NCBI RefSeq assembly: GCF_010731815.2
Contig: NZ_AP022593.1
Coordinates: 5,146,001-5,210,000, forward strand
Direction of reading: 5' to 3'
Source of the DNA: Mycolicibacterium arabiense
Lineage (GTDB): Bacteria; Actinomycetota; Actinomycetes; Mycobacteriales; Mycobacteriaceae
Length of the DNA: 64,000 bases
Below are positions 59,659-61,503 of the stretch, piece after piece. The notes below the pieces were generated by a model. It ran no database searches and was not told the DNA's origin. It saw only the letters and a program-made list of their open reading frames with translations. The translations under genes were made by a program, and so were the position numbers. The stretch's first letter is position 1. Every line of letters begins with the position of its first letter.

Positions 59659-60669
<1,011 letters not shown>

Positions 60670-60698
60670 CCCGGATCAGCACCGGACTTCGAGACGGA

Positions 60699-60729
60699 GA
60701 AAGCCGCCGACCATGGGTCGGCGGCTTTC
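60699..60729. terminator. Terminator between NMO and small gene 1
   Basis: 14-bp perfect stem GAAAGCCGCCGACC (60699-60712) with GGTCGGCGGCTTTC (60716-60729), 3-nt loop, followed by TT. Serves the NMO operon and possibly the convergent small gene. Confidence 0.8.
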
Positions 60730-60800
60730 TTCACGTTCAACTCGATCGGGCGTCGAGGATCCCGGCGCACAGGTGTCGGACCTGGGTGCCGACTACTGGA

Positions 60801-60941
60801 TCAGACTGCGGCGGCGAGATCCGGGAACTGCTCCGCGGTGTCACCCTCGAAGAGGATGTCGCCGTGGTAGAGCGCTTCGAAATCAACCTTGATGACGTTG
60901 TCACTGCTGTCGTCGATCCACATGTACTGAACAGTAACCAC
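60801..60941 (-). CDS. Duplicated 46-aa acidic small protein, copy 1
   Basis: 46 codons from GTG to TGA: MVTVQYMWIDDSSDNVIKV... ending EQFPDLAAAV. Ten or so acidic residues and one Lys; no signal peptide or membrane segment. Copy 2 at 61197-61337 is 40/46 identical, with 12 synonymous and 6 amino-acid-changing codon differences, the pattern expected of a translated gene under constraint. Its 5' flank is also shared. No family recognised; the WIDD and LYHGD parts suggest a small folded domain. No clear ribosome-binding site. Confidence 0.7.
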   Translation of the reverse strand: MVTVQYMWIDDSSDNVIKVDFEALYHGDILFEGDTAEQFPDLAAAV

Positions 60942-61010
60942 GGGGATTGAGAGAACTCTGAGCCCATCTTCTGAAATTGGTGGCAGTTCTTACCGCTGAG
61001 TAGGTTGGCG
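60942..61010 (-). promoter_or_regulatory. Conserved upstream block of small gene 1
   Basis: About 70 nt before the GTG aligns without gaps longer than a base or two to the block before copy 2: shared strings include TTCTGAAA, GGCA-TTCTTACC and GTAGGTT (plus-strand reading). Probably the promoter and an operator. Confidence 0.5.
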
Positions 61011-61055
61011 CTCCGGCAAAGCGCCCGGGACCCCGGGAACACCCTGAAACGCGAG

Positions 61056-61084
61056 GAGCCGCCGACGTCACACGTCGGCGGCTC
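61056..61084 (-). terminator. Terminator after small gene 2
   Basis: 13-bp stem GAGCCGCCGACGT (61056-61068) with ACGTCGGCGGCTC (61072-61084). Lies downstream of copy 2 on its strand and upstream of copy 1, so the copies look like separate transcription units. Confidence 0.65.
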
Positions 61085-61196
61085 GCGTCGTTCTCCAAAC
61101 GGCACTCGTGGCGCCTCAGGGCACCCGATCGTCGTCGCGCAACGCACACTCGCGCTGCAACGGAACGGTCAGACCGAGCGGGCAGGCCCGCTTCGG

Positions 61197-61337
61197 TCAG
61201 ACGGCGGCAGCGAGGTCGGGGAACTGCTCGGAGGTGTCACCCTCGACCAGGACGTCCCCGTGATAGAGGGCCTCGAAGTCGACCTTGATGACATCGGCAC
61301 TGGTGTCGTCGATCCACATGTACTGGACAGTAACCAT
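61197..61337 (-). CDS. Duplicated 46-aa acidic small protein, copy 2
   Basis: 46 codons from ATG to TGA: MVTVQYMWIDDTSADVIKV... ending EQFPDLAAAV. Same properties as copy 1. It lies 166 nt from the mmpL13-like gene, divergently oriented, so its upstream block may also carry that gene's promoter or operator. Function unknown. Too short for most gene callers, which may explain why such genes are missed. Confidence 0.72.
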   Translation of the reverse strand: MVTVQYMWIDDTSADVIKVDFEALYHGDVLVEGDTSEQFPDLAAAV

Positions 61338-61407
61338 CACCATTAAGAGGACTTTGAGTCACGATTCTGAAAACCATGGCAATTCTTACCCGCGGGTAGG
61401 TTCGACC
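61338..61407 (-). promoter_or_regulatory. Conserved upstream block of small gene 2
   Basis: Counterpart of 60942-61010. Contains the perfect palindrome TACCCGCGGGTA (61387-61398) followed by GGTTCG. The divergent mmpL13-like gene starts about 100 nt further on. Confidence 0.5.
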
Positions 61408-61503
61408 GGCGGGCAAAGGTGCGACAGCGCGGGACGAAGCCATTGACCGCCCTTGGTTACCGCTGTTAAGTTAACGCGGATTTCTCAGGGGGAAGGGACC
61501 ACC

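What the first reader, a model, noticed from the sequence alone, without database searches (positions are those of the whole stretch)
60795..61410. Tandem duplicated 46-aa genes beside an MmpL transporter
Two minus-strand frames (60801-60941 and 61197-61337) encode 46-residue acidic proteins 40/46 identical, with 12 synonymous against 6 non-synonymous codon changes: strong direct evidence that both are translated. About 70 nt of upstream sequence is also duplicated, and each copy has its own downstream hairpin. They lie between the mcr operon and an mmpL13-like/tetR operon. I recognise no family. They could be small regulatory or accessory proteins for lipid transport or the mcr pathway.
Basis: partly seen in the sequence, partly recalled or inferred. 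Interest (0 to 1): 0.72.

Follow-up and report, generated by a model that had tools for sequence, protein, structure and literature searches.

The report
Conserved leaderless mycobacterial small-protein gene pair
Two side-by-side copies of a tiny gene encode a 40-residue acidic protein that is carried by nearly all mycobacteria sampled; earlier studies of related species suggest it is really made, but its function is not known.

Summary
In detail: two minus-strand ORFs, tandemly duplicated with promoter and hairpin, under strong coding selection. The start is wrong. In 124 distinct copies the conserved start is the internal ATG (124/124), with a TANNNT -10 box at a fixed 7-nt distance (124/124) and a Shine-Dalgarno-like site in 1, so each gene is predicted to be a leaderless 40-codon mRNA. 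The gene is near-universal in the genus Mycobacterium (388 of 396 genomes) and not credibly found outside it in the genomes sampled. It is normally single-copy; 8 of 396 genomes have a tandem pair, whose second copies share one origin. A few loci lack one or both usual neighbours yet keep gene and promoter. By synteny it is the orthologue of RVBD_1144Ac, inside MTS0900, an M. tuberculosis transcript listed as an sRNA; a leaderless ORF at probably the same place was confirmed by mass spectrometry (coordinate match recalled). Most likely an abundant growth-phase small protein that binds a partner. A link to lipid transport or mcr is not supported. Function unknown.

The parts
61197..61319 (-). 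copy A coding sequence, 40 codons plus stop, MWIDDTSADVIKVDFEALYHGDVLVEGDTSEQFPDLAAAV; the copy that groups with the single gene of near relatives
   Evidence: start ATG in 124 of 124 distinct copies; pN/pS 0.11; tree
60801..60923 (-). copy B coding sequence, 40 codons plus stop, MWIDDSSDNVIKVDFEALYHGDILFEGDTAEQFPDLAAAV; derived paralogue
   Evidence: 34/40 identical to copy A; B copies of 8 loci form one side of a branch, support 100/99; pN/pS 0.20 among B copies
61327..61332 (-). copy A -10 hexamer TACTGT, 7 nt before the ATG (predicted +1 = A of ATG, leaderless)
   Evidence: TANNNT at this offset in 124 of 124; 48 of 11,284 position-copies elsewhere between -110 and -20
60931..60936 (-). 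copy B -10 hexamer TACTGT, 7 nt before the ATG
   Evidence: as for copy A
61341..61384 (-). copy A conserved promoter block -65 to -22: ATTGCCA...TTTTC.GAATCGTGACTCAAAG....CTTAATG; candidate activator site with an 11-bp direct repeat CTCA/CTTA over the -35 region
   Evidence: CTCA at -39 in 124/124, CTTA or CTCA at -28 in 123/124, TTGCCA at -63 in 121/124; TTG at each of -37, -36, -35, -34 in 0/124; about 1.1-1.5 bits per base against 0.13 at -150..-111
60945..60988 (-). copy B conserved promoter block (same element, diverged)
   Evidence: (3 mismatches to the copy A pattern)
61056..61084 (-). hairpin after copy A (13 pairs), possible terminator; a weaker hairpin lies nearer the stop
60698..60730 (-). 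hairpin after copy B (15 pairs), between copy B and the convergent nmo gene; possible terminator
   Evidence: (z -4.3 for the 101-nt stretch)

Best explanation
Each copy is an autonomous, monocistronic, leaderless gene for a 40-residue acidic protein (about 4.4 kDa, pI about 4.05). By synteny it is the orthologue of M. tuberculosis RVBD_1144Ac (inside transcript MTS0900), and so of M. abscessus MAB_4988c. How it works, step by step. (1) Shown by sequence: the protein is under strong purifying selection and has one conserved start. (2) Strongly implied: transcription starts at the A of that ATG, so the mRNA has no 5' leader and is read by leaderless initiation; if it ends at the hairpin it is about 226-264 nt long, which would explain why it looked like an sRNA. 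(3) Inferred: with no -35 hexamer but a rigid 11-bp direct repeat over that region, the promoter is switched on by a DNA-binding activator, possibly of the OmpR/PhoB response-regulator kind, giving high expression in growing cells. (4) Inferred, least certain (about 0.4): the protein is very short and shows no membrane segment by eye (no predictor was run), so it most likely acts by binding a conserved partner, as a small regulator or adaptor. Copy B arose once, with promoter and hairpin, and its copies stay under selection; it may add dose or a divergent binding specificity.
For: Genus-wide: 388 of 396 genomes, 359 of 361 good ones. Coding: pN/pS 0.11 against 2.86/3.39 in the other plus frames; codon positions 1 and 2 carry 1.85 and 1.91 bits, position 3 1.21, the 60 nt after the stop 0.19. 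Leaderless: ATG 124/124, TANNNT at -13..-8 124/124, SD-like 1/124. Promoter block. Autonomy: loci without the usual neighbours keep the promoter. One origin of copy B. pI and mass. Literature: MTS0900, strand R between Rv1144 and Rv1145, RPKM 312 exponential and 49 stationary, second in a table of intergenic sRNA candidates, without a Northern mark (PMC3207917, passages); RVBD_1144Ac/MAB_4988c, ribosome protection (PMC4974804, passages); leaderless ORF 1272167(-) matched at residues 2-24 to a synthetic peptide (PMC9094748, passages and figure legend), with undigested samples among those analysed.
Against: No transcription start, ribosome footprint or peptide was measured for this organism. That ORF 1272167(-) lies between Rv1144 and Rv1145 rests on recalled H37Rv coordinates; a search for such coordinates in print gave nothing useful, and no sequence of RVBD_1144Ac or MAB_4988c was read here. 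The fold could not be predicted (pLDDT 62 and 65, pTM 0.18 and 0.20), so the partner step has no structural support. Beyond this locus, two pattern searches of the genome gave only two weak sites, so the activator is unknown. PMC4974804 speaks of conflicting indications of translation for this ORF. One complete genome (G031) gave no match, so the gene is not indispensable to the genus. Constraint between the copies is uneven: in L053 they differ by 3.75 synonymous and 10.25 non-synonymous changes (pS 0.14, pN 0.11).
Confidence: 0.8

Rival explanations
1. Dual-function RNA: the MTS0900-type transcript also acts as a base-pairing regulatory RNA, with the peptide as one of two outputs.
For: Short abundant transcript listed as an sRNA candidate in M. 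tuberculosis; stable hairpins follow each copy.
Against: Conservation inside the gene follows codon positions; the 60 nt after the stop are hardly conserved (0.19 bits, ungapped, so perhaps an underestimate); no Rfam match near its threshold.
Confidence: 0.12
2. Accessory protein of the mcr operon or of the MmpL13-like exporter.
For: 78 of 89 loci have a divergent mmpL within 2 kb and a convergent nmo/sdr within 2.5 kb.
Against: 2 of the 89 have neither, 3 only mmpL, 6 only nmo/sdr, though some of these are mild: L037 has mcr next door, L050 has nmo 3.4 kb away and L094 has mmpL about 4 kb away. L152 has none of the five queried neighbours within 8 kb. The gene lies on the opposite strand with its own promoter.
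Confidence: 0.1
3. Leader peptide or attenuator of a downstream gene.
For: Small ORF followed by a hairpin.
Against: In the window the next gene downstream (nmo) is convergent, and the best-scoring neighbour frames of L032 and L077 are convergent too.
Confidence: 0.02
4. Longer protein of 46-64 residues starting upstream, as database predictions and the first reader have it.
For: The upstream frame is often open; of the 120 database proteins shown most start upstream (lengths 40-78); ATG stands eight codons upstream in 58 of 124 copies.
Confidence: 0.05

Closest known systems
RVBD_1144Ac / sRNA candidate MTS0900 of M. tuberculosis (and, probably, leaderless ORF 1272167(-))
   Same: Place between the SDR gene and mmpL13, reverse strand, short ORF, short abundant transcript.
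   Different: No duplicate is mentioned there; duplicated here. H37Rv sequence not compared directly; coordinate match recalled.
MAB_4988c of M. abscessus
   Same: Ribosome-protected sORF, named in print as a homologue of RVBD_1144Ac.
   Different: Not compared directly. That these are M. abscessus relatives is a guess.
Leaderless small proteins of mycobacteria in general (PMC4633059, PMC9094748; passages)
   Same: A -10 box next to an ATG start, no Shine-Dalgarno site.
   Different: The 2022 paper says most of its novel ORFs do not look selected; this one clearly is.
ATP-grasp strand-turn-strand of carbamoyl-phosphate synthase large chain (CarB; protein named by eye)
   Same: 30 aligned residues, 37% identical, hhalign probability 90%, pairwise P 1.9e-6.
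   Different: Picked as the best of a wide search; CarB of the window's own genome gave no match to the small-protein profile (its segment read). Probably chance.

Membership tests
Leaderless mycobacterial protein gene | -10 TANNNT box at the right distance for +1 to be the start codon | tested here: met
   124 of 124 copies
Leaderless mycobacterial protein gene | No Shine-Dalgarno sequence before the start | tested here: met
   SD-like in 1 of 124
Leaderless mycobacterial protein gene | Mapped transcript 5' end at the start codon | not testable with these tools
   needs TSS mapping; reported as leaderless for ORF 1272167(-)
Orthologue of RVBD_1144Ac/MTS0900 | Opposite strand between the Rv1144-type SDR gene and the mmpL13-type gene | tested here: met
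   78 of 89 loci have mmpL and nmo/sdr on either side; in L095-L101 the gene sits directly between sdr and mmpL. That Rv1144 is this SDR and Rv1145 mmpL13a is recalled.
Orthologue of RVBD_1144Ac/MTS0900 | Sequence similarity to the H37Rv ORF | not tested
   no named H37Rv record or sequence at hand
Non-coding sRNA | Conservation that does not follow codons | tested here: not met
   pN/pS 0.11; codon-position pattern
Leader peptide | Co-directional regulated gene downstream | tested here: not met
   downstream gene convergent in the window and, by frame picking, in L032 and L077
CarB ATP-grasp segment mimic | Recognisable match to CarB of the same genome | tested here: not met
   own genome gave only the two small genes; the CarB segment was then found and read
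Known Pfam or NCBIfam family | Match to a model | tested here: not met
   0 families up to E 1 for either copy

The most novel reading that the evidence does not exclude
A genus-specific small-protein regulator: a near-universal Mycobacterium protein of 40 residues, driven by a dedicated activator-dependent promoter in growing cells, that controls a central enzyme by copying a strand-turn-strand of that enzyme (for instance the ATP-grasp hairpin of carbamoyl-phosphate synthase).
Probability: 0.06. Interest if true: 0.8.

Novelty: new member of a known kind. Interest (0 to 1): 0.48.

Why it matters
A transcript ranked second among the intergenic sRNA candidates of one M. tuberculosis RNA-seq study appears, from its relatives across the genus, to be a protein-coding leaderless mRNA. 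A near-universal, strongly conserved protein of unknown function with its own unusual conserved promoter, not found outside the genus in the genomes sampled, is a direct target for study in M. smegmatis, and the corrected start matters for any tagging or knock-out. The tandem pair offers a natural test of whether dose or divergence of the protein matters.

Tried and rejected
Phage, plasmid and viral collections: no relatives. Rfam: two chance matches below the gathering score. PDB by profile: one chance match, E 0.9. Two AlphaFold2 runs: low confidence, so no fold search was made. Promoter element elsewhere in the genome: a first pattern missed even the known copies; two better ones found this locus (both copies, copy A alone) plus two 2-mismatch sites, so no regulon. 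Matches outside the genus (18 of 298 order genomes at E up to 0.01): the six I fetched are CarB segments (5) and a solute-binding protein (1), named by eye; the other 12 were not read. CarB mimicry: kept only as a lead. Another ORF in the conserved block: not supported, since pN/pS is 0.61-1.05 over its six frames.

Counting limits: the 124 copies are the distinct ones among 131 found in 121 of 122 sources (loci L032-L152 and the window). The divergent copies L190-L200 were read but not counted. The 80 named loci are the best of 292, so they and the 89-locus context count lean towards close relatives; the 89 include repeats of one genome (L051 and L067, for example). In the homology searches the best 120 of 313, 483 and 313 proteins were shown. 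G429's two hits lie on different contigs and were not counted as tandem. G425's missing gene may be a contig end. L055 and L056 end too soon after the gene to exclude a second copy. Copy B rows of the tree were picked by sequence motif; by position they are the copies nearer nmo.

Full report
Observation. The two minus-strand frames are present at the stated places. About 88 nt upstream are alike, and each copy is followed by a strong hairpin with a related core. The whole unit, promoter to hairpin, therefore seems to have been duplicated (inference).

Distribution. A protein search of 148 relatives gave matches in 85, all among the 88 genomes of the same genus. With a profile of 13 sequences the gene is found in 388 of 396 genus genomes, and in 359 of the 361 that are at least 90% complete and at most 5% contaminated. 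Of the two good genomes without a match, G425 may have lost it at a contig end; G031 (one contig) gave only a 48% SDR match, so its whole neighbourhood seems absent. In 298 genomes drawn from the order, 53 matched at E up to 0.01: 35 of the same genus, and 18 of other genera with E from 1.4e-4 to 0.009. The six of these 18 that I fetched are segments of large unrelated proteins. All 80 named loci shown, of 292 found among 84,980 species genomes, are mycobacterial. No relative was found in the phage, plasmid or viral collections. Pfam and NCBIfam have no model.

Start and promoter. In 124 distinct copies (131 found in 121 sources) the ATG of MWIDD or its equivalent is present in 124, TANNNT stands at -13 to -8 in 124, and a Shine-Dalgarno-like sequence in 1. 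TANNNT occurs in 48 of 11,284 other position-copies between -110 and -20. The upstream part read in frame has pN/pS of about 1.1. This is the layout of a leaderless mycobacterial gene, as described in general in PMC4633059 and PMC9094748 (passages seen). Further upstream, the stretch -65 to -22 is conserved about as well as third codon positions or better (1.1-1.5 bits per base against 1.21; positions 1 and 2 have 1.85 and 1.91): CTCA at -39 in 124 of 124, CTTA or CTCA at -28 in 123, TTGCCA at -63 in 121; TTG stands at none of -37 to -34 (0 of 124 each). The two CTCA/CTTA elements are 11 bp apart. From general knowledge, OmpR/PhoB-type regulators bind 11-bp direct repeats; which regulator binds here is unknown. 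No other clear copy of the element was found in this genome.

Coding selection. Mean pN/pS over 7,626 pairs (codons 1-32) is 0.11 in the frame and 2.86 and 3.39 in the two other plus frames; it is 0.61-1.05 over the six frames of the upstream block. One antisense frame over the gene also shows a low ratio (0.15), but it mirrors the codon positions and has stops in 100 of 124 copies.

Neighbourhood. Of 89 loci (L032-L131) with at least 3.5 kb on both sides, 78 have a divergent mmpL within 2 kb upstream and a convergent nmo or sdr within 2.5 kb downstream, 3 only mmpL, 6 only nmo/sdr, 2 neither. Some exceptions are mild: L037 has mcr next door, L050 has nmo 3.4 kb away, L094 has mmpL about 4 kb away, and L045 has part of nmo about 7 kb away. 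L152, outside this count, has none of the five queried neighbours within 8 kb. In L044, L045, L047 and L152 a methyltransferase-like frame replaces mmpL on the upstream side (named by eye). These loci keep the promoter and start. The gene is therefore an autonomous unit, and its usual neighbours say little about its function.

Duplication. Nine of 396 genomes give two matches. In G429 the two lie on different contigs; the other eight have tandem pairs. In a tree of 46 rows the B copies of eight loci form one side of a branch with support 100/99; rows without a pair lie among the A copies. One duplication followed by losses would explain this. B copies are constrained (mean pN/pS 0.20 among B, 0.16 among A, 0.24 between the copies of one locus), but unevenly: the L053 pair has 3.75 synonymous and 10.25 non-synonymous changes.

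Literature. PMC3207917 (passages) lists MTS0900, strand R, between Rv1144 and Rv1145, 312 RPKM in exponential and 49 in stationary phase, second in its table of intergenic sRNA candidates and without a Northern mark. PMC4974804 (passages) names RVBD_1144Ac as a homologue of MAB_4988c, says that RVBD_1144Ac lies between Rv1144 and Rv1145 in the MTS0900 region and was deleted from later annotation, notes conflicting indications of translation, and holds that ribosome protection and amino-acid conservation suggest translation. PMC9094748 (passages and legend) reports leaderless ORF 1272167(-) matched by mass spectrometry at residues 2-24. That this coordinate lies between Rv1144 and Rv1145 is recalled, not shown by a call. 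A search for six names of the gene found only the first two papers, so I found no functional study of it in this library.

Mechanism. Shown by sequence: a conserved protein with one conserved start and a rigid promoter. Implied: leaderless mRNA. Inferred: activator-dependent expression in growing cells, and action by binding a partner. The models of the protein alone are of low confidence, which fits folding on a partner but proves nothing. A profile match to the CarB ATP-grasp hairpin is a weak lead that the window's own CarB does not support.

Verdict. A real, conserved, most probably translated gene family, already glimpsed in M. tuberculosis and M. abscessus, duplicated here; start corrected, function open.

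Noticed in passing
window 59674-60669: The nitronate monooxygenase/FabK-like gene between the SDR gene and the small gene is present in many loci but missing in the M. colombiense/scrofulaceum-type loci (L095-L101), where the SDR gene abuts the small gene directly.
   Followed up: partly
L044, L045, L047, L152: Here the small gene is divergent from a methyltransferase-like frame (named by eye) instead of mmpL, with the small gene's promoter intact.
   Followed up: partly
window 61386-61399 and copies in other loci: Just upstream of the conserved promoter block there is a loosely conserved, partly palindromic CTAC-N6-GTA(A) element, which could be an operator.
   Followed up: no
G031: A complete 6.2-Mb genome of the genus gave no match to the gene, and its best match to the neighbouring SDR protein is only 48% identical.
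   Followed up: partly
L153-L155, L157, L158: Profile resemblance between the 40-aa protein and the ATP-grasp strand-turn-strand of CarB in other genera of the order.
   Followed up: partly
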